DNA from: Lachnospiraceae bacterium
GTDB taxonomy: Bacteria > Bacillota > Clostridia > Lachnospirales > Lachnospiraceae
Assembly (NCBI GenBank): GCA_017434885.1
Contig: JAFSGE010000005.1
Coordinates: forward strand, 1 to 64,000
Reading direction: 5' to 3'
DNA length: 64,000 nucleotides
The notes under the pieces are model-generated. The model was not told where the DNA came from. It made no database searches and worked only from the letters and a program-made list of their open reading frames with translations. Below are positions 1,512 through 44,133 of this stretch, piece by piece. Numbering within the stretch: position 1 is the first letter of the stretch; every line of letters begins with the position of its first letter. Position numbers and translations under genes: made by a program.

Positions 1512-1906
1512 TTATTTTTCCAACAATTTCTTCGCTTCTTCATAACGTTCAACAGATGAGCCGATTGCCTGACATGCCGCTTCTAACGAAATGCCCAAAT
1601 TGTTAATTAGGTTATTAATATTTTCAATCAAATTTCCTGCATGACCTTCCGCACGTCCTTCTGCACGTCCTTCTGCATGCCCCTTTATTCTTATTTCCTC
1701 AAATTCTTTTTCAAAATCTTCCCGGAATAATTCCTTCAATGCCTGACACATACTCTTTGCCTCCCTAAACGTTTCACTATTTGCACTTACTATCAGTTCC
1801 ATCACTGACTGATACAGCCCTTCATTCTGATGTTTCTCATATTCACTCACAATCTTTTTAGCCGTTTCCACTTCTTTGATATCATCAGTTAGGTATCGTA
1901 ACCCAT
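1512..1906 (-). pseudogene. Rpn-family nuclease, internally deleted copy
   Basis: The frame from a GTG at 1871 encodes 119 residues (ETAKKIVSEYEKHQNEGLYQ...) matching the C-terminal half of the intact nuclease gene at 32199-33119. Directly upstream a well-placed ribosome site and ATG (1904-1906) give MGYDT then stop. The sequence GGTTAC at 1898-1903 marks a junction: the gene's third codon is fused to the codons for RYLTDDIKE, out of frame. The whole PD-(D/E)XK catalytic half is missing. The tail carries GHAEGRAEGRAEGHAG repeats followed by an asparagine/isoleucine-rich helix (NLIENINNLINNLG). Almost certainly nonfunctional as a nuclease. Confidence 0.8.
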
Positions 1907-1910
1907 TACA

Positions 1911-2113
1911 CCCTCCTTTTATTTAGGAGCTTCATCTTCTTTTAGAAACTCCTGCTGTTTGTTTGGAATTAAGCACGAATTTCTGAAAGATACAGATGAA
2001 TATCTGTAATGAATTAATTACACGAAAGATAATGCTATCTTCCGCTCTGATATGTTTTTAGAAAATCTTGCTTATCAATATGATAGCACTAAATATACGG
2101 AAATGCAACTTTA
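1911..2113 (-). repeat. Rpn leader repeat, family A copy 1
   Basis: About 200 bases upstream of the deleted Rpn gene, repeated with high identity at 5312-5516 and 33122-33326. Just before the ribosome site it has a hairpin (1926-1952) with arms GGAGTTTC and GAAGCTCC on the minus strand. The other copies have GAAACTCC, so the C-to-T difference keeps a G-T wobble pair, which argues for a conserved RNA structure. The left part must hold the promoter, not clearly resolved. Confidence 0.75.
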
Positions 2114-2115
2114 TG

Positions 2116-2200
2116 TTGTATATATAATTTTCTCACTTACTATTTTTTGTGATATTTTTGGTTATTATTTCGGATTGCAAATCATTTAATCCAATCTTCC
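2116..2200. repeat. 85-base 3'-end repeat shared with 30492-30576
   Basis: The last codons of the epimerase gene (ending EDWIK) and about 65 bases of downstream sequence match, with few differences, the last codons and downstream sequence of the IspD-like gene at 30558. Similarity stops abruptly after TCTTCC inside the coding sequence. Confidence 0.75.
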
Positions 2201-3225
2201 ACTACACACCTTAACCCCTCCGGCATGTGTACCTGAGCCTTCCAATCAAGAGCCTCTAACTTGGACGCATCCAACATTGCCTTAGTGGCAGTGGAATATC
2301 CTTTGCGTTCCGCTTCATCCGGCAAGTCAAAAACCACTTTAGTGCCGGCAATCTCTGCCAAAGTTTCTGCAAGCTCCTTCAACGTAATATCCGACTCTTT
2401 ATCCGCTACATTGTAGGCCTCACCCGGCTGTCCAAGTAGCATTGCATACAAAATTCCCGTCACGGCATCTGTCACAAATGAATAGGAGTACTTCTGTGTG
2501 CCTTCACTTTTCAGCACAATATCCTCACCTGCTGCCGCCTTCTTGATAAATTGGGAAATTGCTTTAGTATCCGATGCAAGCATGGTAGGCCCATAACACC
2601 TGCTGAGTCTGGGAATCACAAAATCAAGATCATAGGTCTGCTTATATGCATTACACAAGGTTTCTCCAAGGCGTTTGCTCTCCGGATAACCGGCACGTAA
2701 TGTATTGCAATCAATATATCCCAAATACTGCTCGTCAAATTTTTCCACATCTCCACGGTTCTCTCCGTATACTTCCACCGAGGAAACAAAGCAAAACTGC
2801 TTTGCGCTATGAGCAACCGCATAATCAAGCAAATTCTTGGTTCCAAGTACATTAGAGGTAATGGTTCCCACAGAATCCTGCGAATACTGCAAAGGATGAG
2901 TGTTACTTGCCGCATGAATAATATAATCAGCCTGTCCGCACTCAGGAATTGCCTCATTCACATCACAAGACATATAGGTAAAATATGTATTATCCCAATA
3001 TGACGCAAAACGCTCCCTTGCTTTAGCTTCATTTCGGCTGAGAGCAATTATACGAATTTCATTGCCGTTTTTTGCTATCGTTTCATTATAATGCATAAGC
3101 ACGTCTATCATACACTTGCCGATCATACCGGTAGCTCCGGAAAGCATAATAGTTTTCCCGATTACTTTTTCCCACGGTAGTGATAACGCAACCACTTTTT
3201 CTATTTCCTGCTGATATTTATCCAT
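2182..3225 (-). CDS. NAD-dependent epimerase/dehydratase (extended SDR)
   Basis: 347 residues. The N-terminal Rossmann fold has GATGMIGKCMID (residues 30-41, GxxGxxG) and the catalytic YxxxK as YPESK near residue 180, with the serine of FVSSVEVYGE upstream. This is the family that epimerises, dehydrates or reduces nucleotide sugars. The substrate cannot be read from sequence. An N-terminal extension of about 25 residues precedes the fold. It closes the leftmost glycan operon behind a DUF4422 gene (60-base gap). Its last five codons and 3' flank duplicate those of the IspD-like gene at 30.6 kb. Confidence 0.85.
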   Translation of the reverse strand: MDKYQQEIEKVVALSLPWEKVIGKTIMLSGATGMIGKCMIDVLMHYNETIAKNGNEIRIIALSRNEAKARERFASYWDNTYFTYMSCDVNEAIPECGQADYIIHAASNTHPLQYSQDSVGTITSNVLGTKNLLDYAVAHSAKQFCFVSSVEVYGENRGDVEKFDEQYLGYIDCNTLRAGYPESKRLGETLCNAYKQTYDLDFVIPRLSRCYGPTMLASDTKAISQFIKKAAAGEDIVLKSEGTQKYSYSFVTDAVTGILYAMLLGQPGEAYNVADKESDITLKELAETLAEIAGTKVVFDLPDEAERKGYSTATKAMLDASKLEALDWKAQVHMPEGLRCVVEDWIK

Positions 3226-3285
3226 ATCTATCCTGTCCTTCTTTCAGTAACATCAGGCAATTCCTGTTGTTCGCATTCACCGCAA

Positions 3286-4338: not shown

Positions 4339-4368
4339 TCAGAAAGCTCCTTGTAAATATTTTCTATG

Positions 4369-4607
4369 TTATATTTCGGCATTGTCGGTGTTCCTCTTTA
4401 CGTTTATCTGCCTGCATTGCTTCTTGATTCCACCTTTTTCCATAATCATCTCACAGATTATTTCCACCTGGTCGAATCCCTGTTTTTTTAATTCATCTTT
4501 TGCCCGGTTGATTGCGCCTGCAAATCCATTTACCATAGCATCAAACCGCTTCATCATCATTCGCATCTTATCCCGTCAATCTCAACAAAAACAGATAGAC
4601 GTCTCAT
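4369..4607 (-). pseudogene. remnant of a HipA-type kinase toxin gene
   Basis: Immediately after the HipB-like gene an ATG (4605-4607) opens MRRLSVFVEIDGIRCE and then stops, which resembles a HipA N-terminus. In another frame and abutting it, MMMKRFDAMVNGFAGAI...RAKDELKKQGF continues for 65 residues, like the far C-terminus of such a protein. The entire kinase core between is missing, so a large out-of-frame deletion is inferred. HipA identity rests on context and remembered termini, not on catalytic motifs. Confidence 0.5.
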
Positions 4608-4611: not shown

Positions 4612-4824
4612 TCATCCCCTTCTTTCAACCAGCAAATCCATCCCCAAAATATTTATTAACCGAATTGTTTTTTCAATCTCTGCTGTTGGTTTTCCCCGTT
4701 CCAAATCAGAGATGAATGTCACAGACAAACCCGTAAATTCAGACAAATATGCCTGTGTATAACTTAATTCTTTTCTTCTCGCCCTAATAGCCTGACCCAA
4801 GGATTTTGAATCTGATATTTTCAT
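4612..4824 (-). CDS. HipB-like XRE-family antitoxin/repressor
   Basis: 70 residues, a single helix-turn-helix domain: SLGQAIRARRKELSYTQAYLSE (helices 1-2), then SVTFISDLERGKPTAEIEKTIRLINILG. The tail MDLLVERRG is typical of HipB-type antitoxins. The start is ATG at 4824 behind GGAGG. Its promoter contains three copies of a perfect palindrome, so it very likely represses itself. The partner toxin downstream is reduced to end fragments, leaving an orphan antitoxin. Small size and intact domain suggest it is still functional as a DNA-binding protein. Confidence 0.8.
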   Translation of the reverse strand: MKISDSKSLGQAIRARRKELSYTQAYLSEFTGLSVTFISDLERGKPTAEIEKTIRLINILGMDLLVERRG

Positions 4825-4840
4825 AAGTCCTCCACTATAT

Positions 4841-4932
4841 GCCGTTCGGCTAAAATCATTCCAGATACAAAATATTATGCCGAACGGCTAATTCTATTTC
4901 AAATTATAGTATTAGCCGTTCGGCTGTGTCAA
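4841..4932 (-). promoter_or_regulatory. hipB promoter with three palindromic operators
   Basis: On the minus strand TTGACA (4927-4932), an 18-base spacer and TATAAT (4903-4908) form a consensus promoter. The palindrome AGCCGAACGGCT lies inside the spacer (4914-4925). GCCGTTCGGC recurs at 4879-4888 just downstream of the -10 and at 4841-4850 before the ribosome site. The placement is that of an autorepressed promoter. Confidence 0.85.
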
Positions 4933-4938: not shown

Positions 4939-5309
4939 TTATTCCTCCAACAGTTTCTTTGCCTCTTCATAACTTTCAACCGATGAACCAATTGCCTGAC
5001 ATGCGTTTTCTAATGAAATGCCCAAGTTATTAATGAGATTATTAATATTTTCAATTAAATTTCCTGCGTGTCCCTTCGCGTACTCTTTTACTCTTATTGT
5101 TTCAAATTCTTTTTGAAAATCTTCCCGGAACAATTCCTTCAATGCCTGACACATACTCTTTGCCTCCCTAAACGTTTCACTATTTGCACTTACTATCAAT
5201 TCCATCACTGACTGATAAAGCCCTTCATTTTGATGCTTCTCATATTCATTTACAATCTTTTTCGCTGTTTCCACTTCTTTGATATCATCAGTTAGGTATT
5301 GTAACCCAC
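4939..5309 (-). pseudogene. Rpn-family nuclease, internally deleted copy with same junction as at 1.9 kb
   Basis: Encodes 111 residues from a GTG at 5274, matching the C-terminal half of the intact gene at 32199-33119 and nearly identical in plan to the copy at 1512-1906. The original GTG start (5307-5309) survives behind its ribosome site but reads into a stop. GGTTAC (5301-5306) is the same deletion junction as in the first copy. The tail lacks the GRAEGRAEG repeats and has a single KGHAG, followed by the same NLIENINNLINNLG helix. Its stop lies six bases left of the hipB -35. Confidence 0.8.
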
Positions 5310-5311
5310 TG

Positions 5312-5516
5312 CATCCTCCTTTTTATTTGGAGTTTCATCTTCCTTTAGAAACTCCTGCTGTTTGTTTGGAATTAAGCACGAATTTCTGAAAGATACAGAT
5401 GAATATCTGTAATGAATTAGTTACACGAAAGATAATACTATCTTCCGCTCTGATATGTTTTTAGAAAATCTTGCTTATCAGTATGATAGCACTAAATATA
5501 CGATAATGCAACTTTT
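5312..5516 (-). repeat. Rpn leader repeat, family A copy 2
   Basis: Copy of the leader at 1911-2113 and 33122-33326. The hairpin before the ribosome site is at 5329-5355 (arms GGAGTTTC/GAAACTCC). Confidence 0.75.
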
Positions 5517-5541
5517 TATACGTCAGGATTTCATCCAAAGC

Positions 5542-5606
5542 AAAAACGGATAGCAACTTGCACAAACACAACTTTTTGCGTTTGTTTCACGTCATTACCC
5601 GTTTTT
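5542..5606 (-). terminator. T-family hairpin 1, downstream of the DUF4422/GT2 operon
   Basis: Outer arms AAAAACGG/CCGTTTTT flank the conserved inner text GATAGCAACTTGCACAAACA (plus strand). On the minus strand it ends in a T-run and lies 100-165 bases after the stop at 5706, as expected of an intrinsic terminator. Related copies occur near 12.0, 29.3, 30.4, 33.4 and 44.1 kb. This copy is the most diverged in its second half. Confidence 0.65.
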
Positions 5607-5705
5607 ATACTATATTTTGTATACAGAACATTTCCAATGTCCCTTTTTCGTTTATATTTTTAGCACATTTGCCATTGCTTCATATCATATCAAATCCAAC
5701 CATGC

Positions 5706-8730: not shown

Positions 8731-9374
8731 TTATGATATCTTTTTGCATACTTTCTCTACATCATATTTGGGTATTACTTCTTCTGCCGCATCACAGATA
8801 CGATGGATGACATCAATATCCTCTTCCAGTTCTTCCGCAATCTGTTCCCGCGACTTATCCTTTTTAAGCTTCTTACACACCTGTTCTACAAGAAGCACAT
8901 TACGCCCCTGTTCTAATCCTTCCTGTCTCTCATCTGCCAGCATTTCTTTTATTGCCAAACACATATTAACCTTTCCTCCACTTTCATGATTTTGCTTTAC
9001 GGAAACCAACTCTTCTGCTCTGGTATACGCCGCTACCATATCATAGGCTTCTTCGTCCATATCCTGATATGCCGGGTCACTCTGCACCAGCTCCCTTAAT
9101 CGCTTCTTGTCCTTTGCATAACGGATAAAATCAAATATCTGCTTTAAATCGGTCCGAAACACCTCTGTTCGTTCCAGCTTTGCAATCTCAAATACATGTA
9201 TCGGATAATTATTCACATATTTCCTCAATTTCTCAGGAATATCCGTAAAATCCAATATACCATGTAAATCTTTGCTTTTACTATTTGTTCACCTTCAAGC
9301 AATAAGCCATTAATTAAATCGGCATACCGCTCATTGTCTGAGAGACAGTTCTTCCCCCGTATGTCTTTATCCAT
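8731..9374 (-). pseudogene. Rpn-family nuclease, internally deleted
   Basis: An intact Rpn N-terminus starts at an ATG (9372-9374) after GGGAG: MDKDIRGKNCLSDNERYADL continues to about residue 36. It is then fused out of frame, near 9265, to the second half starting at LHGILDFTDIPEKL. The downstream frame runs 174 residues to 8731 (NYPIHVFEIAKLERTEVFRT..., tail VCKKLKKDKSREQIAEELEED). The catalytic ENQ/EIDY-type region is lost. The tail resembles those of the copies at 10789 and 32199. Confidence 0.75.
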
Positions 9375-9438
9375 ATTCAGTTTCTCCCTTCTACGGAAGC
9401 ATCCAAAAATCTCCCGCTTGTTTCTTTTTGATTGGAAT

Positions 9439-9504
9439 AAGCATAGATTTTTAGATATTTTCTGAATTTAGATATTTAGAAATATATAGAATAAAATTTA
9501 TGCT
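9439..9504 (-). repeat. Rpn leader, AAGCATA-bounded segment (copy C)
   Basis: A 66-base AT-rich segment bounded by inverted AAGCATA and TTATGCT, lying between the terminator at 9528-9565 and the Rpn start at 9374. Similar segments precede the Rpn copies at 11.8 and 30.2 kb and the coiled-coil gene at 43.9 kb. Probably the promoter region of the unit; exact boxes not resolved. Confidence 0.5.
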
Positions 9505-9527
9505 CTGGAAAAAGTATATCACATCAT

Positions 9528-9565
9528 AAAAAAAATGTCACGAAAAAACATAGCTTTTCATGACA
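9528..9565 (-). terminator. intrinsic terminator after the GT11 gene
   Basis: Minus strand: TGTCATGAAAA, loop GCTATG, TTTTTTCGTGACA, then eight T. It lies 38 bases after the GT11 stop. It does not belong to the T-family hairpins. Confidence 0.8.
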
Positions 9566-9602
9566 TTTTCATGACATAATTTTCACTAATAAACTCAAAT
9601 CA

Positions 9603-10491: not shown

Positions 10492-10788
10492 TCATATACA
10501 TACTTGCAATTCCTTTTCAAAATCACTGATACTTTCTGCCCTTGCTGCCAGCTTCAGCCATTTCTTCAAAACCTCTAAATCCTTTTGTTCATATATCTTA
10601 TCGCTTAACTCCTTTGACACTTCTCCTGCCTCACTTAATAATTCAATAACAGCAGATGCTTTTCCTTTTGTTATACCTTCCGCAACTCCATCATCATAAA
10701 ATTCCTCTAATGCTCTGCACATGTTTCCTTCCTCCTCTGCTTTGTTGTTTTTCCCCCAGTACACCACCAGTGTTGACACAGGAAATAT
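10492..10788 (-). pseudogene. second, truncated tandem copy of an Rpn gene
   Basis: Starts in homology with KIFPVSTLVVYWGK immediately after the stop of the Rpn gene at 10789. It then jumps from WGK to NNKAEEEGNMCRALEEF, a deletion of about 120 codons compared with 29536-30243; both edges carry GGAAA-type sequence. The tail (SAVIELLSEAGEVSKELSDK) matches the 29536 copy, not its immediate neighbour. Only 95 codons remain and no nuclease domain. Confidence 0.75.
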
Positions 10789-11785
10789 TTACATTACATC
10801 CGGCATTTTCTTATCCCGAAGAAGCTTATATATTTTTTTTGTATCAAATTCAGGCGCAAAGCTTAATGCCACATCATATATTTTCTTTATGGTATATTCA
10901 TCTTCTTCCAATTCTTCTGCTATCTGTGATACCTCTTTTTCTTTTGCTATTTTCCGACAAACCAACCCTATAAGCTTAATTGCTTCACCTTCCGCAACTC
11001 CATCATCATAAAATTCCTCTAATGCTCTGCACATGTTTCCTTCCTCCTCTGCTTTATTCTTAAACTGATTTATCATCTTTGGTGAGTTTGTCACCTTCCC
11101 AAGCACGTCCCAGCTCTCATCATCCATTTTGGAGCATTCCTTGCTGTTCCTTAAATATTCTATAAATTCTTTTTTGTTATTCCTATTTTTATACAGTTCA
11201 AAGAATGGCCGAAGCTCTGTCTTAAAGTATTCCGGATGTTCTATCTTGGATAAATCCAGAAAGTGTATGGGGTATTCCGGCACAAGATTTTTGACCTCTT
11301 CTCCATCCTCTCCCCAGTCTATCATGTCATGCAGGCTTTGGGGGCCGTCCCATTCTTCCTTTCCCCAGTACACTACCAGCGTCGATACTGGGAATATCTT
11401 ATCATCCTTTTTTTACCTTGTACAGAAATTCCCCGCCCGGTTTCAGTCCTTTCTTGGCATTTTCCTTTTTCTTTTGCCTGATTTGCTCGCCGTATGCCAT
11501 TGCCTCCTGCCGCATAACCCGCACCGGCATTCCGTAATCTACATGCTCCTGATTTTCCACTGTCCACAATGCAAACCTCTGTCCGGTCAGGCTCTGCTTC
11601 ATCACCAAATCCCGGAGCATTTCTTCTGCCTCTGTCTCTTCCGCCACGTCCAGCACCGGCGATACTTCTTCAAGCTCCTGTGGCTTTACCACCTCTCTGC
11701 CTTGGAACAGGCTTCCGTTCCAAAGGTCTGCGTACCGCTCTTTGTCACTGAAATACACCTTCAATCTGATGTCTTTTTCTCCCAT
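10789..11785 (-). pseudogene. Rpn-family nuclease, near full length with a frameshift in an A7 run
   Basis: First part 11785-11402 (MGEKDIRLKVYFSDKERYAD..., then ENQEHVDYGMPVRVM, the PD-(D/E)XK-type core) ends KVKKG-stop. The second part 11373-10789 continues YWGKEEWDGPQSLHDMIDW to a 194-residue tail. The break is an A7 run on the minus strand at 11408-11414 where the homologue at 30.2 kb has AAAGAA; one base less restores KVKKDDKIFPVS. So this is a one-base slip in an otherwise complete gene of about 330 codons. It could be a switchable or recently dead copy. Confidence 0.75.
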
Positions 11786-12003
11786 TTTGCCTCCTTCTTG
11801 CAGGAGACAATATCATGCCTTGCTTTCTGTGCATCTCCTGCTTTATTCTTTTTGATGTTTGAAATAAAGCACGATTTCATTTAGCACTGCACAGCAGCCA
11901 GATGTTCTATCTAAGAAATGTAATAGAATGTTAGAAATATATGCTTCAAGCAGAGTATAGCATGACGTAAAAACATATTTCAATCATTATTTCTTTTCAA
12001 AGC
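11786..12003 (-). repeat. Rpn leader repeat, family B copy 1
   Basis: Upstream region of the frameshifted Rpn gene. It contains a hairpin with arms GCAGGAGA/TCTCCTGC just before the ribosome site AAGGAGG and an AAGCACGATTT...ATATGCTT-bounded segment (11867-11946). The left part matches 30244-30415 closely. Confidence 0.7.
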
Positions 12004-12063
12004 AAAAACGGATAGCAACCTGCACAAACACAATATCTTGTATTTATACATCGCCACTATCCG
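12004..12063 (-). terminator. T-family hairpin 2, end of the AT-rich glycan operon
   Basis: Arms CGGATAG (12009-12015) and CTATCCG (12057-12063) enclose the conserved CAACCTGCACAAACACAATA and an inner ACAA/TTGT hairpin. The minus-strand stem ends in TTTTT. About 140 bases beyond the stop at 12201. Confidence 0.75.
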
Positions 12064-12200
12064 TATCACACACCACATGTTGTATTTTCCGACAGTTAGC
12101 CCGTCTATTTTTTATTGAATTTTCAGCATATTTATGGCGTCCACCTAAAAATACTTTTCTCATCTATAACGTCATATCATCTGCTTTTTTCAAGTTCAAA

Positions 12201-29033: not shown

Positions 29034-29324
29034 TTTATCATTCATTTGTCACCCTCTACCATCCTCCATGATGCACTACGACCTTCCTTGTCTTTCATTT
29101 ATAACAAATCACTTTTCAGTTTAACATTCATAATTTTTATCGGCAGTCATCCTTATTTTCTTAATACTTTCATGAGAAATATCCGTTTCGGGTAGAGTGT
29201 AATTCTAAATTCCACTTCTTATCCGTTTAATCTTGAGTGCGTTTCATATTTCATGTTGAGTGCTGTAAAGTATACTCTTGAATATCAGACAACTTATCTC
29301 CTTTTCACATTCTTAATTCTCCAC

Positions 29325-29383
29325 AAAAAAAACGGATGTCAGCCTGCTAAGATGTAATATCTCACATCTGCATGCTCCATCCG
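29325..29383 (-). terminator. T-family hairpin 6 (diverged)
   Basis: Arms CGGATG and CATCCG with an inner AGATGTAATATCTCACATCT-type hairpin, and a minus-strand tail of eight T. It follows the truncated Rpn gene at 29536 and is the most diverged of the family. Confidence 0.65.
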
Positions 29384-29535
29384 TTCCTGCTTCAAAGGTA
29401 ATTTTATATGTACTGCATTTTATAAATCACCTTCATATCTTTCTGTATTTTTCGGTAAAAAAGATGAAAGAAACACGGAATACAAAAATTATATTCTCAT
29501 GTTCCATCCTCTCCTATTCTAATTTCTTTTTAAGC

Positions 29536-30243
29536 TTATAATCGAATCGCGCTTTCAAACTCGCTGACGCTTTCTGCCCTTGCTGCCAGCTTCAGCCATT
29601 TCTTCAAAACCTCCAAATCCTTTTGTTCATATATCTTATCGCTTAACGCCTTTGACACTTCTCCTGCTTCACTTAATAATTCAATAACAGCAGATGCTTT
29701 TCCCTCTGCTCTTCCCTCCGCAACTCCATCATTATAAAATTCCTCTAATGCTCTGCACATGTTTCCTTCCTCCTCCGCTTTGTTGTTTTTTTCCATTTTA
29801 TTCTTAAAATCATTTATCATCTTTGGTGAGTTTGTCACCTTCCCAAGCACGTCCCAGCTCTCTGCATCCATTTTGACACATTCCCTGCTGTTTCGTAAAT
29901 ATTCTATAAATTCTTTCTTATTATTCCTGTTTTTGTACAGTTCAAAGAATGGCCGAAGTTCTGTCTTAAAATATTCCGGATGTTCTATCTTGGATAAATC
30001 CAGAAAATGTATCGGATATTCCGGCACAAGATTTTTGATTTCTTCGCTCTCTTCTCCCCAGTCTATCATGTCATGCAGACTTTTGGGACCGTCCCATTCT
30101 CCCTTTCCCCAGTACACTACCAGTGTCGATACAGGGAATATCTTATCATCCTTCTTTACCCTGTACAGAAATTCCCCGCCCGGTTTCAGTTCTCTCTTGG
30201 CATTTTCCTTTTTCTTTTGCCTGATTTGCTCGCCGTATGCCAT
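29536..30243 (-). pseudogene. Rpn-family nuclease, 5'-deleted
   Basis: 235 codons starting MAYGEQIRQKKKENAKRELK, which correspond to the middle of the gene at 10789-11785. The first 110 codons, including the DKERYAD and ENQEHVDYGMP region, are gone. The leader is joined directly at GCAGGAG, a motif present both in the leader hairpin and just before the MAYGE codons, so deletion at a 7-base repeat is inferred. The fused GGAGG lies only two bases from the ATG. The tail is of the SAVIELLSEAGEVSK type. Confidence 0.75.
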
Positions 30244-30415
30244 AGCCTCCTGCTTTATTCTCTTTGATTTTTGAAATAAAGCACGATTTCACTTAATACT
30301 GCACAGCAGTCAGATGTTCTATCAAAGAAATGTAATAGAATGTTAGAAATATATGCTTCAAGCAGAGTATAACATGACGTAAAAACATATTTCAATGATT
30401 ATTTCTTTTCAAAGC
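30244..30415 (-). repeat. Rpn leader repeat, family B copy 2
   Basis: Matches 11826-12003 closely, including the AAGCACGATTT...ATATGCTT-bounded segment (30279-30358). The part between the GCAGGAG hairpin arms and the original start is deleted. Confidence 0.7.
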
Positions 30416-30480
30416 AAAAACGGATAGCAACCTGCACAAATACAATATGTTGTATTCATACAAGGTCATTATCCGTTTTT
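30416..30480 (-). terminator. T-family hairpin 3, end of the IspD-like operon
   Basis: Arms AAAAACGGATA / TATCCGTTTTT (one mismatch) with the conserved GCAACCTGCACAAATACAAT core. Symmetric A/T runs make it potentially bidirectional. About 80 bases after the stop at 30558. Confidence 0.75.
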
Positions 30481-30557
30481 ACCACTTTATGCTGTATATA
30501 TAATTTTCTCATCTATTATTTTTTGCAATATTTTTAGTTATTATTTCGGGTTGCAAA

Positions 30558-31268
30558 TCACTTAATCCAGTCTTCCCTTTCCATCTTAAGCAGTGCCTTG
30601 AACACTTCCAAATCATCAATGGTAGTGACTTTCACATTCTTTTCTGTTCCCTTGGAGAAATATACTGTTTCCCCGAGCCGCAGCATCAGGGTGTTAATAT
30701 ATACTTCTCCGGTAATTCCCTGTCTTTCTGCCTCTTCATAAGCCCAAATAGCCTTACTGTAACGATAAGCCTGCGGTGTCTGCACACGCATAATCTCCGA
30801 TCTTGCAATTCCTTCACAGCCTGACTTTCCGTCTTCAGTCCGAACAATGGTTTCCTGGCACCTAACAGCGCTTAATCCGGAGCCTTTTCTCATACAGGTC
30901 TTAATGGCATCGGAAATCACCTCTTCCGTGATAAACGGACGAATGGCATCATGTACCAAAAGCACATCATCATCTGTACAGATATCCTTCAGTGCCTTTA
31001 CACCCTTTCCGGTAGATTCCTGTCCGTCATTTCCTCCGTGCACAATCCACTTAAGCTTGGTAATCCGATACTGTCTGGCATAAGCACGGAGTACTTCGTG
31101 CCATCCATCTAAGCATACCACTGCAATCCCATCAATATCAGGGTGACGTTCAAAATTTTCCAACGTATATATAATCAGTGGTTTGTCATATACATTCATA
31201 AATTGTTTAGGGATATCCTGAGCAGTTCTGCTGCCATATCCTCCTGCTAATATCAGTGCTATGTTCAT
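30558..31268 (-). CDS. IspD/TarI-like cytidylyltransferase 2
   Basis: 236 residues from the ATG at 31268 (GGAG seven bases upstream). IspD-superfamily signatures: NIALILAGGYGSR, the PKQF loop (DIPKQFMNVYDKPLIIYTLE), VLLVHDAIRPFITEEVI (metal site) and RVQTPQAYRY. Such enzymes couple CTP to methylerythritol phosphate (IspD) or ribitol phosphate (TarI). Its place directly behind two LicD phosphotransferases argues for a CDP-polyol donor used on a glycan rather than isoprenoid synthesis. Its 3' end is repeated at 2116-2200. Confidence 0.85.
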   Translation of the reverse strand: MNIALILAGGYGSRTAQDIPKQFMNVYDKPLIIYTLENFERHPDIDGIAVVCLDGWHEVLRAYARQYRITKLKWIVHGGNDGQESTGKGVKALKDICTDDDVLLVHDAIRPFITEEVISDAIKTCMRKGSGLSAVRCQETIVRTEDGKSGCEGIARSEIMRVQTPQAYRYSKAIWAYEEAERQGITGEVYINTLMLRLGETVYFSKGTEKNVKVTTIDDLEVFKALLKMEREDWIK

Positions 31269-32024: not shown

Positions 32025-32170
32025 CTCAATCCTCCTCATTTTTCGAAGAATAATCCGAATACTCCAACCGGAGAGGATTTATTCTCCTTGATACTGCATC
32101 GGCTGCCCTGCCATTTATTTACTACTTTATATATCGGTTGTTTTATGCAAATCTTTAATTTTTCTACATA

Positions 32171-32200
32171 ACTCCATCCGTTCTTATTCACACTTTATCT
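32171..32200 (-). repeat. fragment of a T-family hairpin
   Basis: CTCCATCCGTTCTTATTCAC and following bases match the distal arm and flank of hairpin 4 (33401-33420). The other arm is absent. It abuts the stop of the intact Rpn gene. Confidence 0.5.
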
Positions 32201-33119
32201 ACTTATCATAAATAACCTTATATATTTTTTCTGCATCGAAATCAGGTGCAAAGCTGATTGCTACATTATATATTTTCTTTATAATACTTTCATCTTCTTC
32301 CAGTTCCTCTGCTATCAGTGGCATTTCTTTTCCCTTTGCTATTTTTCTACAAACTAATTCTATTAATTTTTCTGCATGTCCCTTTATTCTTATTCTTTCA
32401 AATTTTTCTTCATATTCTTTTTCAAAATCTTCCCGGAATAATTCCTTCAATGCCTGACACATACTCTTTGCCTCCCTAAACGTTTCACTATTTGCACTTA
32501 CTATTAGTTCCATCACTGACTGATAAAGCCCTTCATTCTGATGTTTCTCATATTCACTCACAATCTTTTTAGCCGTTTCCACTTCCTTAATATCATCTGT
32601 CAGATACCGCAACCAAAAATTCTCTTTCTCAGACAGCTCCGTGGTAACAATAATCTGTATCGGAAAAAAATCACCTTTAATATAATAAATACCGTTTTCT
32701 CCGCTTACTTCATATCCTCTTACTGTTTCTAAATGTTTTATCAATTCCCTTGGATGTCTTGCCGTCGCCAATGTTATTGTAATTTCTTCTGCCTTAATCT
32801 GATTCACACTCTGCGCATCCGATTTGTAAAAACAGGCATATGCATACACCTTGTAAAAATCATCAACACTCAGATAATCCGTGGGACTTTTATATTCCAC
32901 GATGTTGTACGTCCTGAATATCCTGCCAATGTTCTTCTGAATCTCAATTTCAGGATTTTTCTTGATAATAAGCACGTCTACCTCCTTCGGCTTCGTTCCC
33001 AGTTGATGCTCATTTTCAAAAATGAGATTCTCCTTCTCCCCTGCCAGTTCAATCTGCATACCGCCATAAAATGCCGGATGCCACTGAAAGACAGACATTT
33101 CCTCTTTCTTGTAACCCAC
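32199..33119 (-). CDS. Rpn-family PD-(D/E)XK nuclease, the only intact copy in the window
   Basis: 306 residues from the GTG at 33119, with AGGAGG five bases upstream. The PD-(D/E)XK core is visible: KEVDVLIIKK (D), then IVEYKSPTDYLSVDDFYK (E-x-K) near residues 72-90. A helical linker ETAKKIVSEYEKHQNEGLYQ, an FRED-EKE-rich charged segment, and the tail KLIELVCRKIAKGKEMPL...IAEELEEDE follow. Rpn proteins are DNA nucleases that promote recombination and are often annotated as transposases. It sits at the operon boundary between the LicD and IspD blocks. It could act in trans on the other units. Confidence 0.82.
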   Translation of the reverse strand: MGYKKEEMSVFQWHPAFYGGMQIELAGEKENLIFENEHQLGTKPKEVDVLIIKKNPEIEIQKNIGRIFRTYNIVEYKSPTDYLSVDDFYKVYAYACFYKSDAQSVNQIKAEEITITLATARHPRELIKHLETVRGYEVSGENGIYYIKGDFFPIQIIVTTELSEKENFWLRYLTDDIKEVETAKKIVSEYEKHQNEGLYQSVMELIVSANSETFREAKSMCQALKELFREDFEKEYEEKFERIRIKGHAEKLIELVCRKIAKGKEMPLIAEELEEDESIIKKIYNVAISFAPDFDAEKIYKVIYDK

Positions 33120-33121
33120 TA

Positions 33122-33326
33122 CATCCTCCTTTTTATTTGGAGTTTCATCTTCTTTTAGAAACTCCTGCTGTTTGTTTGGAATTAAGCACGAATTTCTGAA
33201 AGATACAGATGAATATCTGTAATGAATTAGTTACACGAAAGATAACACTCTCTTCCGCTCTGATATGTTTTTAGAAAATCTTGCTTATCAGTATGATAGC
33301 ACTAAATATACGAAAATGCAACTTTT
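33122..33326 (-). repeat. Rpn leader repeat, family A copy 3
   Basis: Leader of the intact nuclease gene, matching 1911-2113 and 5312-5516. The hairpin GGAGTTTC/GAAACTCC (33139-33165) precedes the ribosome site. Confidence 0.75.
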
Positions 33327-33344
33327 TCACACATTTACTTTTTT

Positions 33345-33410
33345 CACAAAAACAAACAGATGGCAACTTGCACAAATACAATATCTTGTATGTACATGCT
33401 CCATCCGTTC
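33345..33410 (-). terminator. T-family hairpin 4, end of the LicD operon
   Basis: Arms CAGATGG (33357-33363) and CCATCCG (33401-33407) around CAACTTGCACAAATACAATA and an inner TACAA/TTGTA hairpin. The minus-strand tail is T-rich. In hairpins 1-3 and 5 the first arm reads GGATAG, so the change to AGATGG with CCATCC opposite is partly compensatory. Confidence 0.7.
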
Positions 33411-33519
33411 TTATTTTACACATTATCTTGTATTTAGAAAAATTCACTAAGTACCGGTAACTCAGATTTTTCTACACTGCTTCACAGGCACATCGCACAC
33501 TCATTCATATAAACACTTT

Positions 33520-41405: not shown

Positions 41406-41406
41406 T

Positions 41407-42930
41407 TTATAATCCTCCTAACATGTTTGTCACAGCAGTTGAATTGGATTGCATCTTTGCCATGGCTGTTTCCATTTCGGCAAATTTCTTGTACCACTTG
41501 TCTTCATACGCAAACAGCTTTTCTTCCAAATCAGCAATCTTGCTGGTATAACTCGTATAGTCTGATGTAAGCTTCTTGTCATCATAAAAATTACCGTAGC
41601 TCCGATAACCGTTAACTGACTTGGACATGTCAAACATCTTATCGTAAAGCTTCTGGGATAACTGTGAGAAAAAGCTCACAACCGTATCCGGATTATTGGT
41701 AATCATTTCTTTCAGCTTATTGGTAGCTGTGGATGTATTTTCATCATCTGCATCACCGTCGATATGATATGCATTACGCTCATATTTCTCTGCACTGAAA
41801 TATCCCAACGTTGCGATACCAAAATCAGAAAGATACATTGTTTTTCCGTTTACCGTAAAACCGGATGACATAACATCTTTCAAAGCCGTGCTGATATCGG
41901 ACAAATTCTCATCTCTGTAAAGAAGGGAATCCTTGATTTTCTGTTCCCAGTCTTCCACTTTCTTTTCCGACATGGAATACTCTTCTTCTTCCGACAACGG
42001 GTCATAATCCTTACCGCTGTCATCATTGTACAATTTGTCCATGCTGTTGATAAGCTCATTGTACTCCTTGAAGAGATTTTTAATCATATCATAGATACCG
42101 GAGGTATCATTTTCTGTCGTCAGTGTTACTTCTTCTCCCGCCTTGGTCTGCTGCAGAGCCGTAATAGTAAGTCCGTTTATCTGGAATACGTTGGTATCGC
42201 TGGTAAATTCGGCATCATTGAGCCAAATCTTGGCATTACTTCCGTCTACCTTTGTTGCACCTGCATCCTCGGTCAGTTTTAACGCAGACAATGCTGCCAG
42301 TCCGTTTGCATCAGAAGAAGTAAGTGTAAAATCACTGGCTTCTCCGGATTTTTTCGCACTGACAAACAATCTGCCCTGTTTCTCATCAAAGCTTGCATTT
42401 AAGCCGTTATCCTTTAACTGGGTTAGCACATCTGATATTGTGGTATTTTCATTTACTGTGATATCTACAGATTTTGCGCTGCTGCCGGTTCCTGTTGTCA
42501 GTGTAATGGTTCCTTCTCCTTCAACAGTACTGCCTGTAATATCGCTTAACTTTGTCAGCGCATTTAATTTGCCTGCATCACTTCCTGCCAACTTACCACC
42601 TGTTAAATATGCAGTTTTTGCCAACCGCTCCACACGCAGGGTCTGCACACTGTTAACAGCATTTTCGCTTGTAATTACATTTGCAATATTGCTGTTGGAC
42701 ACTTTCGTTGTTTTCTTTGCATAGTCAGCAGACAAACGCATGTTGGAAACATACTTATTCTGAAAGCTTTTCAGCTTGGTGTTTAAATCCTTCCACGCTT
42801 CCTGCTTCCACTCCAGCTTTTTCTGTTCTTTTTTGGTATTGTCTACCTTCTTCTGCCTTACAGCAACCAGTTCCTGGATAATGCTTTCTGTATCAAGTCC
42901 GGAATTCATTCCGGTTAATCGCATTGCCAT
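41407..42930 (-). CDS. fliD: flagellar cap protein FliD
   Basis: 507 residues. N-terminal RLTGMNSGLDTESIIQELVA is diagnostic of FliD. A heptad helix follows (KKVDNTKKEQKKLEWKQEAW), then the variable D2/D3 region and the C-terminal FliD domain (STALKDVMSSGFTVNGKTMY, LSDFGIATLGY, DKMFDMSKSVNGYRSYGNFY, KKFAEMETAMAKMQSNSTAV). Five to ten subunits cap the filament and fold incoming flagellin. Sigma-D operon with flaG and fliS. Confidence 0.95.
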   Translation of the reverse strand: MAMRLTGMNSGLDTESIIQELVAVRQKKVDNTKKEQKKLEWKQEAWKDLNTKLKSFQNKYVSNMRLSADYAKKTTKVSNSNIANVITSENAVNSVQTLRVERLAKTAYLTGGKLAGSDAGKLNALTKLSDITGSTVEGEGTITLTTGTGSSAKSVDITVNENTTISDVLTQLKDNGLNASFDEKQGRLFVSAKKSGEASDFTLTSSDANGLAALSALKLTEDAGATKVDGSNAKIWLNDAEFTSDTNVFQINGLTITALQQTKAGEEVTLTTENDTSGIYDMIKNLFKEYNELINSMDKLYNDDSGKDYDPLSEEEEYSMSEKKVEDWEQKIKDSLLYRDENLSDISTALKDVMSSGFTVNGKTMYLSDFGIATLGYFSAEKYERNAYHIDGDADDENTSTATNKLKEMITNNPDTVVSFFSQLSQKLYDKMFDMSKSVNGYRSYGNFYDDKKLTSDYTSYTSKIADLEEKLFAYEDKWYKKFAEMETAMAKMQSNSTAVTNMLGGL

Positions 42931-42944
42931 ATATTTGTTACCTC

Positions 42945-43373
42945 CTATCGCTTCTCATCAACAAGAAGTCCTGCGATTTCCCATGCTTTTGCAATCAGGT
43001 CAAGGGTCTTTTCGGGAGGAAGCTCTTTAATTACTTCCTTACTTTCTTTGTCAACAAGCTTGATAGTCACTCTGTTAGTCTCTTCGTGAATACCAAACAC
43101 TGCCTCTGAATTATTCAGATTCTTGTTCAGCTTTTCTACAGCTTTTTTAATCTGTTCTTTGCTCGCCTGCTGGTTTTCAGCAGAGTCGCCCTGACCGCTT
43201 TGGGAATCCTGCTTCTCAACGGATGCTACCTTTGCGGTAGTTGTATCGTAAGCGTAATTCTGTTCAGGTGTAGAAACTTCCGTGTTCTCTACATTTGTTT
43301 TTGTTACAGGCTTAGCCTGCGGTGTTGTCTGTGCCTGATAAGTCATTGCACTGCTTAATGGTTCAATTGCCAT
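42945..43373 (-). CDS. flaG: FlaG family flagellar protein
   Basis: 142 residues from the ATG at 43373 (GGAGGTGA five bases upstream). The first 80 residues are low complexity (glutamine, threonine, serine). The FlaG domain is C-terminal: EQIKKAVEKLNKNLNNSEAV, FGIHEETNRVTIKLVDKESK, EVIKELPPEKTLDLIAKAWE. FlaG affects filament length and stability and almost always precedes fliD. First gene of the operon driven by the sigma-D promoter at 43442. Confidence 0.9.
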   Translation of the reverse strand: MAIEPLSSAMTYQAQTTPQAKPVTKTNVENTEVSTPEQNYAYDTTTAKVASVEKQDSQSGQGDSAENQQASKEQIKKAVEKLNKNLNNSEAVFGIHEETNRVTIKLVDKESKEVIKELPPEKTLDLIAKAWEIAGLLVDEKR

Positions 43374-43441
43374 TGAAATCACCTCCGTGTGATAGTTTGA
43401 AAGTTATTTGTTACTTAGAGTCTCATAGTCTTCTTACTTTT

Positions 43442-43468
43442 ATATCGGATGATATGGAAAAAAATTTA
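43442..43468 (-). promoter_or_regulatory. sigma-D promoter of flaG-fliD-fliS
   Basis: Minus strand TAAA (43465-43468), exactly 15 bases, TCCGATAT (43442-43449). About 70 bases upstream of flaG. Confidence 0.9.
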
Positions 43469-43569
43469 GGGGTTACGACAAATTTCTTTGCAAATCTTGA
43501 ATGTAAAATCCCTTAGTGTTTCCTTGGTAATCCGGCAATATTCCCTCCAAGTGCAAGTGCAATCTCACT

Positions 43570-43881
43570 TTAAGAAATCATCTGCAATTTCTTACTATGT
43601 TCCGCAACCACCTTTTTCACAACACTCATGTCCTGCTTCAGAGTATCATAATCCTCCACGCTGTTTTTGTACCGTTCGTAAGTGGATGTATAGCAGGCCT
43701 CTATGGTCTCCAGTCTCGGCAGAATGATGTTTTCCTGATTCAGCTCGACGCGTTTCAGACGGGTGCTGATTTCCACCACATTATTTTCCAACCTTGCGAT
43801 GTCGCTTTTCATTTCCCGTATATCTTCCCTAATGGGGTCAAGCATATTAGATAAAGATAATAAAATTTCGTTATCTGTCAC
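43570..43881 (-). CDS. small coiled-coil protein of unknown function
   Basis: 103 residues from a GTG at 43881 with GGGAGGTG upstream. The sequence is a long amphipathic coiled coil (SNMLDPIREDIREMKSDIAR, LENNVVEISTRLKRVELNQE, VVKKVVAEHSKKLQMIS) with the N-terminus TDNEILLSL. No enzymatic motif, signal or membrane segment. It lies between csrA and flaG but carries the same kind of leader and upstream T-family hairpin as the Rpn genes, so it belongs to that repeated unit class rather than to the flagellar regulon. A Bacillus-type flagellar role is not indicated. Confidence 0.65.
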   Translation of the reverse strand: MTDNEILLSLSNMLDPIREDIREMKSDIARLENNVVEISTRLKRVELNQENIILPRLETIEACYTSTYERYKNSVEDYDTLKQDMSVVKKVVAEHSKKLQMIS

Positions 43882-43904
43882 GTTTTCACCTCCCTTCCTT
43901 ATCA

Positions 43905-44018
43905 GGCAGGCTCCAAAAAAATCCCTGCCTTATCTTTCATAATGAAATAAGCATAGATTTCAGATGTGATTCAGAACATCGAAATAACATATAGAATATA
44001 GATTCAAAACTTATGCTT
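43905..44018 (-). repeat. Rpn-type leader before the coiled-coil gene (copy D)
   Basis: Contains the hairpin GGCAGG/CCTGCC (43905-43929) near the ribosome site and a segment with perfect inverted ends AAGCATA (43949-43955) and TATGCTT (44012-44018). It corresponds in layout and partly in sequence to the Rpn leaders at 9.4, 11.9 and 30.3 kb. Confidence 0.6.
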
Positions 44019-44073
44019 GCAAGAATCGTAGCACACTTTATCTGTTTTGTCATGTCAAAAATTCCGGCATATA

Positions 44074-44133
44074 AAAAGCGGATAGCAACTTGCACAAACA
44101 CAATATCTTGTATTTATCAAGTATCGCTATCCG
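44074..44133 (-). terminator. T-family hairpin 5, downstream of csrA
   Basis: The best-formed copy: CGGATAGC/GCTATCCG extended by ACTTG/CAAGT, with the conserved CACAAACACAATATCTTGTA top and a minus-strand CTTTTT tail. Lies about 80 bases beyond the csrA stop, ending the flgM-csrA operon. Confidence 0.8.

What the first reader, a model, noticed from the sequence alone, without database searches (positions are those of the whole stretch)
1512..44133. Operon boundaries of the glycan island are punctuated by repeated units: hairpin, leader, Rpn-type ORF
Seen: at about 44.1, 33.4, 30.4, 12.0, 9.5 and 5.6 kb, a terminator-like hairpin is followed at once, in the same orientation, by a leader with a GGAG-containing hairpin and then an Rpn ORF (a coiled-coil ORF at 43.9 kb). 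A seventh unit at 1.9 kb has the leader and ORF but lacks the hairpin. Five hairpins (44.1, 33.4, 30.4, 12.0, 5.6 kb) are related in sequence; the 9.5 kb one is not. Each unit sits exactly between two operons. Inference: the hairpin may be the 5' end of a mobile or recombinogenic unit that insulates itself, or Rpn nucleases may use terminator sites. The units divide the island into exchangeable blocks and would provide homology for block exchange.
Basis: partly seen in the sequence, partly recalled or inferred. Interest (0 to 1): 0.75.

Follow-up and report, generated by a model that had tools for sequence, protein, structure and literature searches.

The report
RNA-switched nuclease genes between glycan blocks
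The repeated units at the joints of this flagellar sugar-gene island are copies, mostly decayed, of small nuclease-type genes that share a switch-like RNA leader matching no catalogued RNA family, and compared with one related gut bacterium sugar-gene blocks have changed at several of these joints.

Summary
In detail: seven minus-strand units (44.1, 33.4, 30.4, 12.0, 9.5, 5.6, 1.9 kb) lie at gene-block borders, and five hairpins are related. Only the 33.4 unit keeps a full-length Rpn-type ORF. A sixth related hairpin (29.3 kb) has no unit, and an eighth unit lies outside the island on contig C54.

The strongest result is the leader. A covariance model matches 34 of 37 same-genus genomes (E<=0.05) and 45 of 299 sampled family genomes (E<=0.01), this one included. 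Of the 59 loci these searches returned, 49 have a Rpn/PD-(D/E)XK-type ORF downstream (genus 29 of 30, family 20 of 29). No Rfam family fits. Four predicted, mutually exclusive helices (seg0:seg1, seg1:seg2, seg2:seg3, seg3:Shine-Dalgarno) pair better within than between 43 leaders; four control pairings do not. I infer a translational on/off switch.

The hairpin belongs to some unit types only, and carries two palindromic boxes 41-42 bp apart.

Against G026, three shared blocks meet at Rpn genes or remnants at three of four joints. At csrA|flaG, 18 of 27 readable relatives are empty. First-reader interpretation: partly supported.

The parts
44066..44140 (-). related hairpin / box pair behind csrA
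   Evidence: R1 83.2 bits (training copy); fold -30.6 kcal/mol, z -6.4; second box 42 bp upstream
44025..44053 (-). sigma-70-like promoter ATGACA-17-TACGAT (TG before -10)
   Evidence: scan
43879..44030 (-). switch leader (44.1 type) in front of the coiled-coil ORF
   Evidence: R2 39.9 bits at 43915-43967 (training copy); folds
43570..43881 (-). 103-aa coiled-coil ORF (not Rpn-like)
   Evidence: in G026 the homologous ORF at the same site lacks the long leader
33344..33414 (-). related hairpin / box pair
   Evidence: R1 75.3 bits (training copy); fold; boxes
33293..33321 (-). promoter-like TTGCAT-17-TATCAT (read by eye, not in the scan list)
   Evidence: sequence
33117..33290 (-). switch leader
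   Evidence: R2 38.1 bits; folds
32199..33119 (-). full-length Rpn-type ORF, 306 aa, PD-(D/E)XK-like DVLI...EYKSP motif, tail X
   Evidence: no Rpn or PD-(D/E)XK family match
30408..30482 (-). related hairpin / box pair
   Evidence: R1 91.7 bits (training copy); fold -34.9, z -9.1
30366..30395 (-). promoter TTGAAA-18-TATACT
   Evidence: scan
30240..30366 (-). truncated switch leader (seg3 and the original RBS deleted, seg2 fused to the coding region)
   Evidence: R2 49.3 bits; sequence
29536..30243 (-). Rpn ORF with N-terminal deletion between 7-bp GCAGGAG repeats, tail Y
   Evidence: PF04754 23.6 bits, cut-off 21
29316..29390 (-). sixth related hairpin, without leader or Rpn ORF after it
   Evidence: BLAST 75% to the 33.4 unit; R1 76.7 bits (training copy); fold
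11996..12070 (-). related hairpin / box pair
   Evidence: R1 88.1 bits (training copy); fold; boxes
11954..11983 (-). promoter TTGAAA-18-TATACT
   Evidence: scan
11783..11950 (-). switch leader
   Evidence: R2 50.8 bits (training copy); folds
10492..11785 (-). Rpn gene broken into three ORFs (11402-11785, 10789-11373, 10492-10779) with a duplicated C-terminal segment
   Evidence: (D9)
9525..9600 (-). unrelated hairpin, terminator-like
9513..9541 (-). promoter GTGACA-17-TATACT, overlapping the hairpin
   Evidence: scan
9372..9512 (-). switch leader (9.5 type, near-identical copy in G016)
   Evidence: R2 41.1 bits (training copy)
8731..9374 (-). broken Rpn gene (49-codon 5' ORF, then a C-terminal 174-aa ORF in another frame)
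5534..5608 (-). related hairpin / box pair (41 bp apart, read by hand)
   Evidence: R1 85.2 bits (training copy)
5307..5511 (-). promoter TTGCAT-17-TATCAT (by eye) and switch leader
   Evidence: R2 38.1 bits
4939..5309 (-). Rpn remnant: 5-codon ORF at the leader's start codon, then a C-terminal-only 111-aa ORF, tail Z
1904..2112 (-). promoter (by eye) and switch leader of the unit without a hairpin
   Evidence: R2 38.1 bits (training copy)
1512..1906 (-). Rpn remnant, C-terminal-only 119-aa ORF, tail Z with GRAEG-type repeats

Best explanation
The units are paralogous Rpn-type PD-(D/E)XK nuclease genes in various stages of decay, each carrying its own sigma-70-like promoter and a 130-170 nt switch leader. 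Shown by computation: the leader contains a chain of overlapping complementary segments, seg0 (at the transcript's start), seg1, seg2, seg3 and the Shine-Dalgarno, in which neighbours can pair but not all at once. Inferred: seg1:seg2 plus seg3:SD is the OFF state that keeps a toxic nuclease from being translated, and seg0:seg1 plus seg2:seg3 is the ON state. A factor that reads the conserved unpaired YCCAA-type loop between seg1 and seg2 may choose between them. Five types of Rpn/PD-(D/E)XK-like ORF follow this leader in Lachnospiraceae. Where examined, units sit directly behind upstream terminators, that is at operon borders. In this island most ORFs are broken while promoter and leader remain. 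Because units are repeated, oriented alike and lie at the borders, they are the likely joints at which glycan blocks have been exchanged (positions shown against one relative; mechanism inferred). The hairpin of the island's main unit type travels with the unit. It probably ends the upstream transcript and also presents two operator-like palindromes four helical turns apart.
For: Leader: R2 matches 34 of 37 genus genomes at E<=0.05 and 45 of 299 family genomes at E<=0.01 (strict filters), this genome included. Of the 59 loci those calls returned, 49 have a Rpn-type ORF downstream: 29 of 30 genus, 20 of 29 family; 30 of 40 if the 19 loci used as seeds of the type models are left out. In the larger set of 92 matches aligned it is 85, but that set holds 13 rows fetched as PF04754 genes and omits four weak matches that I judged false by eye.

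Helices: cross-permutation over 43 non-redundant leaders (of 92) gives seg1:seg0 p 0.012, seg1:seg2 5e-5, seg2:seg3 5e-5, SD:seg3 1.5e-4. Four control pairings give p 0.63-0.84 (first run). The 8 core seg1:seg2 pairs are formed in 95.2% of cells, against 92.8% shuffled and 41-59% when slid; 31 cells change on both sides against 16.2 shuffled. The 5' part alone folds seg0:seg1 in 9 of 9 leaders tried. SD is less accessible than in shuffles (0.354 v 0.440, p 0.005, 30 of 43). Loop motif YCMA in 64 of 78 v 23.4 expected. No Rfam family.

Units and blocks: unit ends by alignment; empty csrA|flaG sites in 18 of 27 relatives; block comparison with G026, G022 and G003.
Against: SD occlusion is the weakest step. 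In per-leader shuffles (17 leaders, several near copies) SD:seg3 reaches p<=0.05 in 2 of 16, against 11 of 16 for seg2:seg3, 10 of 17 for seg1:seg2 and 7 of 17 for seg1:seg0. Native SD is not below its shuffle mean in 13 of 43, and for the 33.4 type the SD:seg3 helix is only 4-5 pairs. The permutation results are averages: the native partner is in the top 10% of its row in only 5, 14, 13 and 7 of 43 leaders for the four helices. The outer part of the seg1:seg2 helix is formed in about half of cells. Rows are related, so the p-values are not for independent events. R2 was trained on rpn leaders; 10 of its 59 loci have no typed ORF, and at least four of these (L176, L181, L193, L194) look like chance matches, so 45 of 299 is partly inflated. 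Type labels are by best score and can reflect shared C-terminal tails. The 44.1 kb leader precedes a coiled-coil ORF. No expression, toxicity or ligand data exist here. One relative only has a syntenic glycan island, and one of its four joints has no Rpn match.
Confidence: 0.57

Rival explanations
1. The hairpins are simply the terminators of the upstream operons, older than the Rpn genes, and Rpn genes settle behind any terminator.
For: Two copies of one unit in G016 lie directly behind unrelated terminators and share sequence only from about 3 bases before the -35; in another pair (G000 C50, G016 C20) the same gene and terminator are followed by two different rpn units. The 29.3 kb hairpin has no unit.
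Against: 33.4 v C54, and two loci of G022, share the box/hairpin region across different neighbouring genes. None of the 18 empty csrA|flaG sites shows this hairpin in the printed sequence, and of the 35 same-genus relatives searched with R1 only G026 has a match at E<=0.01 (strict filters).
Confidence: 0.2
2. The unit is a conventional insertion sequence whose left end is the hairpin.
For: Repeated, oriented, with empty sites.
Against: No common left end: box 1, about 30 bp 5' of box 1, or the -35, depending on type. The right end is at the Rpn stop codon for 1.9 v 5.6. No inverted repeats of 40 nt or more (shorter ones not tested). PMC10327210 found no inverted repeats or target duplications for rpn and thinks transposase function highly unlikely (section 4).
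Confidence: 0.07
3. The hairpin is chiefly a DNA operator: two palindromic boxes (ATACAAGATATTGTGT-like) four turns apart, bound by a repressor such as NrdR, so that rpn transcription follows a nucleotide signal.
For: In 11 of 12 copies listed the best second match within 31-59 bp of the apex lies 41-42 bp upstream; in the twelfth (5.6) the two boxes are also 41 bp apart, read by hand. The 24+18 and 20+22 nt layouts compensate 4-nt indels (counted by hand). 20 of 24 boxes, and both boxes in 9 of 12 copies, fit the NrdR regex of PMC12051234, which describes a tolerated four-turn spacing (passages). Among 82 leader loci 42 bp is the commonest pair spacing (5 pairs; next 39 bp with 3; 41 bp has 2).
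Against: Only 7 pairs at 41-42 bp in 82 loci. The regex is loose. By my count the boxes lie some 55-110 bp upstream of the -35 instead of over the promoter. This genome's own nrdD boxes are 32 bp apart. The apex is palindromic anyway because it is a hairpin.
Confidence: 0.15
4. The leader is conserved only by recent duplication of paralogues and has no RNA function.
For: Copies inside the window are near-identical in places.
Against: Leaders in the family loci seen (L166-L194) differ in many letters yet the aligned rows keep the pairings; control pairings are flat; the leader precedes five ORF types.
Confidence: 0.1

Closest known systems
E. coli rpn (YhgA-like, PF04754) genes: RpnL/RpnS intragenic toxin-antitoxins (PMC10327210, passages and section 4 read; PMC5350276, passages read)
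   Same: PD-(D/E)XK nuclease-type genes, multicopy, horizontally moving, no terminal inverted repeats reported, variable C-terminal tails with short amino-acid repeats, C-terminal-only remnants
   Different: The switch leader is not mentioned in the passages read (0 occurrences of 'leader', 'UTR' or 'terminator' in PMC10327210 main text). Several of the five ORF types here are not detectably related in sequence. Association with glycan-block joints.
Translational attenuators and riboswitches with sequestered Shine-Dalgarno (general class, recalled)
   Same: Chain of mutually exclusive helices ending at the SD
   Different: No conserved leader peptide found (0 of 43 with an SD-preceded uORF running over seg1/seg2); signal unknown; no Rfam family
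IS200/IS10-type insulation (terminator plus SD-sequestering leader ahead of a transposase; recalled, one listing search returned nothing specific)
   Same: A terminator-like hairpin followed by an SD-occluding leader would stop both read-through transcription and translation from outside promoters
   Different: No transposase shown and no common ends
NrdR box pairs (PMC12051234, passages read)
   Same: Palindromic A/T-rich boxes with C...G ends, spaced by an integral number of turns
   Different: Placed far upstream of the promoter and in front of nuclease-type genes instead of ribonucleotide reductase genes

Membership tests
Rpn / PF04754-PF12784 nucleases | match to a family model | tested here: inconclusive
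   29536-30243 matches PF04754 at 23.6 bits (cut-off 21); 10789-11373 at 18.9, below cut-off; 32199-33119, 8731-9255, 1512-1871, 4939-5274 and 11402-11785 have no Rpn or PD-(D/E)XK match. Of 55 downstream ORFs, 14 match PF04754, 5 PF12784 and 9 TIGR01784 at E<=0.01.
Rpn / PF04754-PF12784 nucleases | PD-(D/E)XK active-site pattern | tested here: inconclusive
   32199 and two family members share DVLI...(I/V)EYKSP. The names of types T2, T3 and T5 as Rpn-like are partly recalled; T1 and T3 are homologous by hhalign (99.7), T2 is weakly linked (82 and 78), T4 and T5 are not linked.
Rpn / PF04754-PF12784 nucleases | variable C-terminal tail with short repeats | tested here: met
   three tail types exchanged among window ORFs; GRAEG-type repeats in 1512-1871
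Rpn toxin-antitoxin | internally translated C-terminal antitoxin and toxicity | not testable with these tools
   needs ribosome data or growth assays
Insertion sequence | one defined left and right end in all copies | tested here: not met
   left ends differ between unit types in the pairs aligned
Insertion sequence | terminal inverted repeats | tested here: inconclusive
   no inverted repeats of 40 nt or more in the window; shorter terminal repeats were not tested
Insertion sequence | target-site duplication at an occupied site | tested here: inconclusive
   csrA|flaG occupied v empty sites share only a TAAC at both edges, read by eye, too short to count
Intrinsic terminator | stable hairpin followed by a U-tract | tested here: inconclusive
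   stable folds with short T-runs, but the consensus scan lists only the 9.5 kb one
SD-sequestering translational switch | mutually exclusive conserved helices | tested here: met
   as averages over leaders; the SD:seg3 helix is the weakest
SD-sequestering translational switch | change of translation on a signal | not testable with these tools
   needs reporter or probing experiments
Known Rfam RNA family | match to one of 4227 covariance models | tested here: not met
   window at gathering: none; ten leader loci at E<=1: three snoRNA-named matches at E 0.036, 0.32 and 0.39, all below gathering
NrdR operator | two boxes fitting the published pattern at an integral-turn spacing | tested here: inconclusive
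   spacing 41-42 bp; both boxes fit in 9 of 12 copies
NrdR operator | binding by NrdR | not testable with these tools
   needs a binding assay

The most novel reading that the evidence does not exclude
A portable RNA switch class of Lachnospiraceae, apparently undescribed, that arms PD-(D/E)XK nucleases of several kinds: the leader is the conserved part and the protein is exchanged beneath it, and it can even be captured by a non-nuclease ORF (44.1 kb). A cellular or phage factor reading the conserved YCCAA loop would flip seg1:seg2 to seg0:seg1 and release translation, which would answer how such nucleases are held silent. Decayed units survive as promoter-leader joints at which surface-glycan blocks are swapped.
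Probability: 0.35. Interest if true: 0.8.

Novelty: new variant of a known kind. Interest (0 to 1): 0.62.

Why it matters
How the activity of Rpn toxins is released is called 'a key unresolved issue' in the passage seen of PMC10327210 (the passage is cut there). A conserved two-state leader in front of several nuclease-type families gives a concrete, mutable handle on how they are kept silent. It also supplies a bioinformatic tag (R2) for finding further such genes, including families that current protein models miss. If the units are the joints for glycan-block exchange, they explain how a flagellar surface-glycan island can be rearranged without breaking operons.

Tried and rejected
Hairpin as a genome-wide palindromic repeat: rejected, 7 strong forward copies in the genome, 6 in this window. 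Leader-peptide attenuation: not supported, no SD-preceded uORF over seg1/seg2 in 43 leaders. Free RNAduplex scoring of the chain gave long, fuzzy duplexes, mostly not better than shuffles, and was replaced by local complementarity with shuffles and cross-permutation. Empty site for the C54 unit: the nifX-like gene is found in 15 of 37 genomes; of the 12 loci whose downstream sequence was printed, 11 are relatives with varied neighbours, so no empty site could be defined. Leader in viral contigs: one exact pattern, no match. Defence-gene library: only weak matches (PADLOC, 6 proteins). Solved structures: nothing useful. First leader pattern in the genus: besides this genome's 8 matches there were 7 others, of which only G016:C78 looked like a unit. 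Literature: searches listed no description of this leader; 'recombination-promoting nuclease' with 'Lachnospiraceae' gave 0 papers.

Full report
What the window is. The window is the first 64 kb of a 474 kb contig (C40) of a 3.1 Mb, 58-contig genome. It holds a flagellar and flagellin-glycosylation region in which most long ORFs lie on the minus strand. Genus members are unnamed in the tool. One of them, G026, has a contig of exactly the length (101,558) of JAGBBV010000021.1, 'MAG: Lachnospiraceae bacterium isolate RGIG8976', so I take the group to be Lachnospiraceae.

Seven minus-strand units occur at the stated places. One search finds them as direct-repeat families. folds the five related hairpins at -25.5 to -34.9 kcal/mol (z -4.9 to -9.1). 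A model built from six window hairpins (R1) has seven forward matches at E <= 3e-11 in the whole genome: its six training copies and one on contig C54. The leader pattern has eight matches in the genome, exactly the seven window units plus C54, and none in the reversed control. So the C54 copy, behind a clpX and nifX-like gene pair (names by my reading), is an eighth unit outside the island.

The ORFs are mostly ruined, the leaders less so. Read from the leader's start codon the ORFs have 103 (coiled coil), 306, 235, 127, 49, 5 and 5 codons. The 30.4 kb copy has lost its N-terminal part by deletion between two GCAGGAG heptamers still present in the 12.0 kb copy, which also removed the third leader segment and the original ribosome site. 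The 12.0 kb copy is split in three with a duplicated C-terminal segment. The 9.5 kb copy is split in two. The 5.6 and 1.9 kb copies keep only the C-terminal third. For 1.9 v 5.6 the shared sequence runs from 2112/5515 (just before the -35) to 1511/4938 (one base past the stop codon).

The leader is a conserved RNA with overlapping helices. Folding the leaders showed that the 5' strand of the GGAG hairpin can instead pair upstream. The same plan, with other letters, is in the leaders of 44.1, 33.4, 12.0 and 9.5, in relatives at the csrA site, and upstream of many PF04754 genes in the genus. In the 33.4 unit the segments are seg0 ATAAGCAAGATTTTCTAA, seg1 AGAAATTCGTGCTTAAT, seg2 GCAGGAGTTTC, seg3 GAAACTCC and the ribosome site AAAGGAGG. 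In L197 (contig C30 of this genome) they are AAAGCATA, ATGAAAATCTATGCTTTG, AAAGCAGGAGATTTTCAT, GCTCCTGC and AAAGGAGG.

Where the leader occurs. A model of the seg1-seg2 part built from 13 leaders, 4 of them from this window (A4, R2), matches 34 of 37 genus genomes at E <= 0.05, up to 14 matches each, and 45 of 299 sampled family genomes at E <= 0.01 under strict filters; both counts include this genome. The two searches returned 59 loci (L136-L194; best matches, capped at 30 a call). An ORF of one of five Rpn/PD-(D/E)XK-like types follows in 49 of 59: 29 of 30 genus loci and 20 of 29 family loci, or 30 of 40 without the 19 loci that served as seeds of the type models (the script counts 50, 21 and 31, but I count L169 as a miss because its best match is followed by a transposase and only a second leader match in that locus by a typed ORF). 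Of the ten misses, L155 runs off its contig, L184 and L185 look by eye like a nuclease tail and a cut nuclease start, L169, L172 and L174 have other genes, and L176, L181, L193 and L194 look like chance matches. Among 92 matches aligned the figure is 85 (T2 YKDRVFR 28, T1 VEKEF 24, T3 NERYADI 20, T4 EELDMMD 7, T5 DVLI..EYKS 6), but 13 of those rows were fetched as PF04754 genes and I had left out L176, L181, L193 and L194; L144, L148 and L155 were left out as repeats of places already in. Pfam names 14 of 55 downstream ORFs PF04754 and 5 PF12784, and NCBIfam Rpn. T1 and T3 are homologous (99.7), T2 is weakly linked (82, 78), T4 and T5 show no clear sequence link. Calling all five 'Rpn-like' therefore rests partly on recalled annotation and on the DVLI..EYKS motif, and shared tails can decide a type.

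Tests of the helices. On the 92-row alignment (78 distinct) eight core seg1:seg2 pairs are formed in 95.2% of cells against 92.8% shuffled and 41-59% when slid by 1-3 columns, with 31 double-changed cells against 16.2 shuffled. A hand-extended 15-pair helix is formed in 73.9% against 70.4% shuffled and 37-54% slid, with outer pairs formed in about half of rows. In 43 non-redundant leaders (rows without a recognised ribosome site, with short upstream sequence, or 80% or more alike were dropped from 92), native pairing exceeds pairing between leaders for seg1:seg0 (p 0.010 and 0.012), seg1:seg2 (5e-5), seg2:seg3 (5e-5) and SD:seg3 (4e-4 and 1.5e-4). Four pairings not predicted by the model (seg2:upstream, SD:upstream, seg1:region 3, SD:seg2) give p 0.63, 0.68, 0.72 and 0.84. 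These are averages: the native partner is in the top tenth of its row in 5, 14, 13 and 7 of 43 leaders. A first test on 13 leaders gave 0.0064, 0.0002, 5e-5 and 0.0043. Per-leader shuffles on 17 leaders reach p <= 0.05 for seg1:seg0 in 7 of 17, seg1:seg2 in 10 of 17, seg2:seg3 in 11 of 16 and SD:seg3 in only 2 of 16. The 5' part up to seg1, folded alone, pairs seg0 with seg1 in 9 of 9 leaders tried. The ribosome site is less accessible than when the upstream sequence is shuffled (0.354 v 0.440; 30 of 43 lower; p 0.005), but in 13 of 43 it is not. A YCMA motif lies in the seg1-seg2 loop in 64 of 78 distinct rows against 23.4 expected. No Rfam family matches above gathering, and ten leader loci give only three weak snoRNA-named matches. 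Leader-peptide control is not supported: 0 of 43.

Is the hairpin the unit's end? Mixed. 33.4 v C54 are homologous from the first ATACAAGAT box onward, and two loci of G022 from about 30 bp 5' of the first box, each behind different neighbours and terminators. Two copies of another unit type in G016 share sequence only from about 3 bases before the -35, behind unrelated terminators. So terminators are where these units sit, and in one lineage a hairpin came along. In that lineage a second copy of the hairpin's palindromic apex lies 41-42 bp upstream (11 of 12 copies by the script, the twelfth by hand; the 29.3 copy only 9 of 16 letters), across compensating 4-nt length differences counted by hand. 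This looks like a DNA operator pair. Both boxes fit the published NrdR pattern in 9 of 12 copies. The paper reports that a four-turn spacing is tolerated (PMC12051234 passages), this genome's nrdD has box-like sites 32 bp apart, and among 82 leader loci 42 bp is the commonest pair spacing with 5 pairs, then 39 bp with 3, while 41, 31 and 26 bp have 2 each. I treat NrdR as a hypothesis.

Empty sites. FliW was found in 30 of 37 genus genomes, this one included. csrA was read in 29 of those 30 loci and its 3' side in 28, this genome and 27 relatives. By my reading 18 of the 27 relatives pass directly, or through a short unrelated terminator, into the flaG promoter. This genome, G026 (hairpin and coiled-coil ORF, no long leader), and G003 and G022 (rpn) carry the hairpin or an rpn unit. 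Four carry another insert: G014, a short ORF; G030, an ORF without Pfam match; G006, AAA-ATPase with PDDEXK_9; G020, a GT-D glycosyltransferase. G021 and G023 show no flaG in the stretch printed.

Do blocks change at units? Against G026, the flagellin-to-33523 block (76-94% identity), the ispD-like pair (92-94%) and the glycosyltransferase-epimerase pair 2185/3289 (81-83%) are shared. Rpn genes or remnants lie in both genomes at three joints: between 33523 and the ispD pair, after the ispD pair, and before the GT-epimerase pair. At the fourth, after the epimerase (1.9 kb here), G026 has no Rpn match. The long stretch between the ispD pair and the GT-epimerase pair is non-orthologous (best hits 21-39%, several ORFs without any). 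The Rpn types at the joints differ: the GT-epimerase block is preceded by a T5-type remnant here and by a gene of the PF12784-like type with its own leader in G026; the G026 remnants at the other two joints have no leader match. G022 and G003 also have Rpn genes with leaders next to glycan genes. G016 joins an epimerase-like gene (by eye) directly to a 9.5-type unit. This supports units as joints. It does not tell whether homology between units or Rpn-made breaks cause the exchange.

Known context. PMC10327210 (passages and section 4) describes rpn genes as intragenic toxin-antitoxins against phages, mobile without inverted repeats or target duplications, with ends that vary, and calls release of the toxin a key unresolved issue. 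PMC5350276 (passages) reports an in vitro nuclease activity of RpnA. The search listings showed no paper on this leader; most subscription papers are not held.

Verdict. Observation confirmed. Interpretation partly supported.

Noticed in passing
[not shown]
   Followed up: partly
2108-2249 and 30484-30619: The last codons (EDWIK) and 3' UTR of two unrelated genes (epimerase, ispD-like) are shared (93 nt at 89%; longer at 77%); one is followed by a unit without the hairpin, the other by a unit with it.
   Followed up: partly
about 32170-32190 (-): An orphan left arm of the hairpin (AATAAGAACGGATGGAG) just after the full-length Rpn ORF, like the scar of a deleted second unit (by eye).
   Followed up: no
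43570-43881 and L036:7805-8287: The coiled-coil ORF after csrA has the Rpn-type leader here, but in G026 it follows the promoter almost directly: the leader seems to have been captured by, or lost from, a non-Rpn ORF.
   Followed up: partly
4620-4932 (-): A small XRE/HipB-like gene (by eye) with a TTGACA-18-TATAAT promoter (12 of 12) inside an inverted repeat GCCGAACGGCTAA..TTAGCCGTTCGGC, directly after the 5.6 kb unit's Rpn remnant.
   Followed up: no
L108, L112, L116, L117, L130: A second class of rpn leaders with CTTTTCGCC..GGCGAAAAG and a strong TTTCTCCTGT..ACAGGAGGAAA hairpin over the ribosome site.
   Followed up: no
L103:906-2615, L104:864-1943, L102:1044-1523: The csrA|flaG junction looks like an insertion hot spot in this genus: AAA-ATPase with PDDEXK_9, a GT-D glycosyltransferase and an unknown ORF sit there in three other genomes.
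   Followed up: partly
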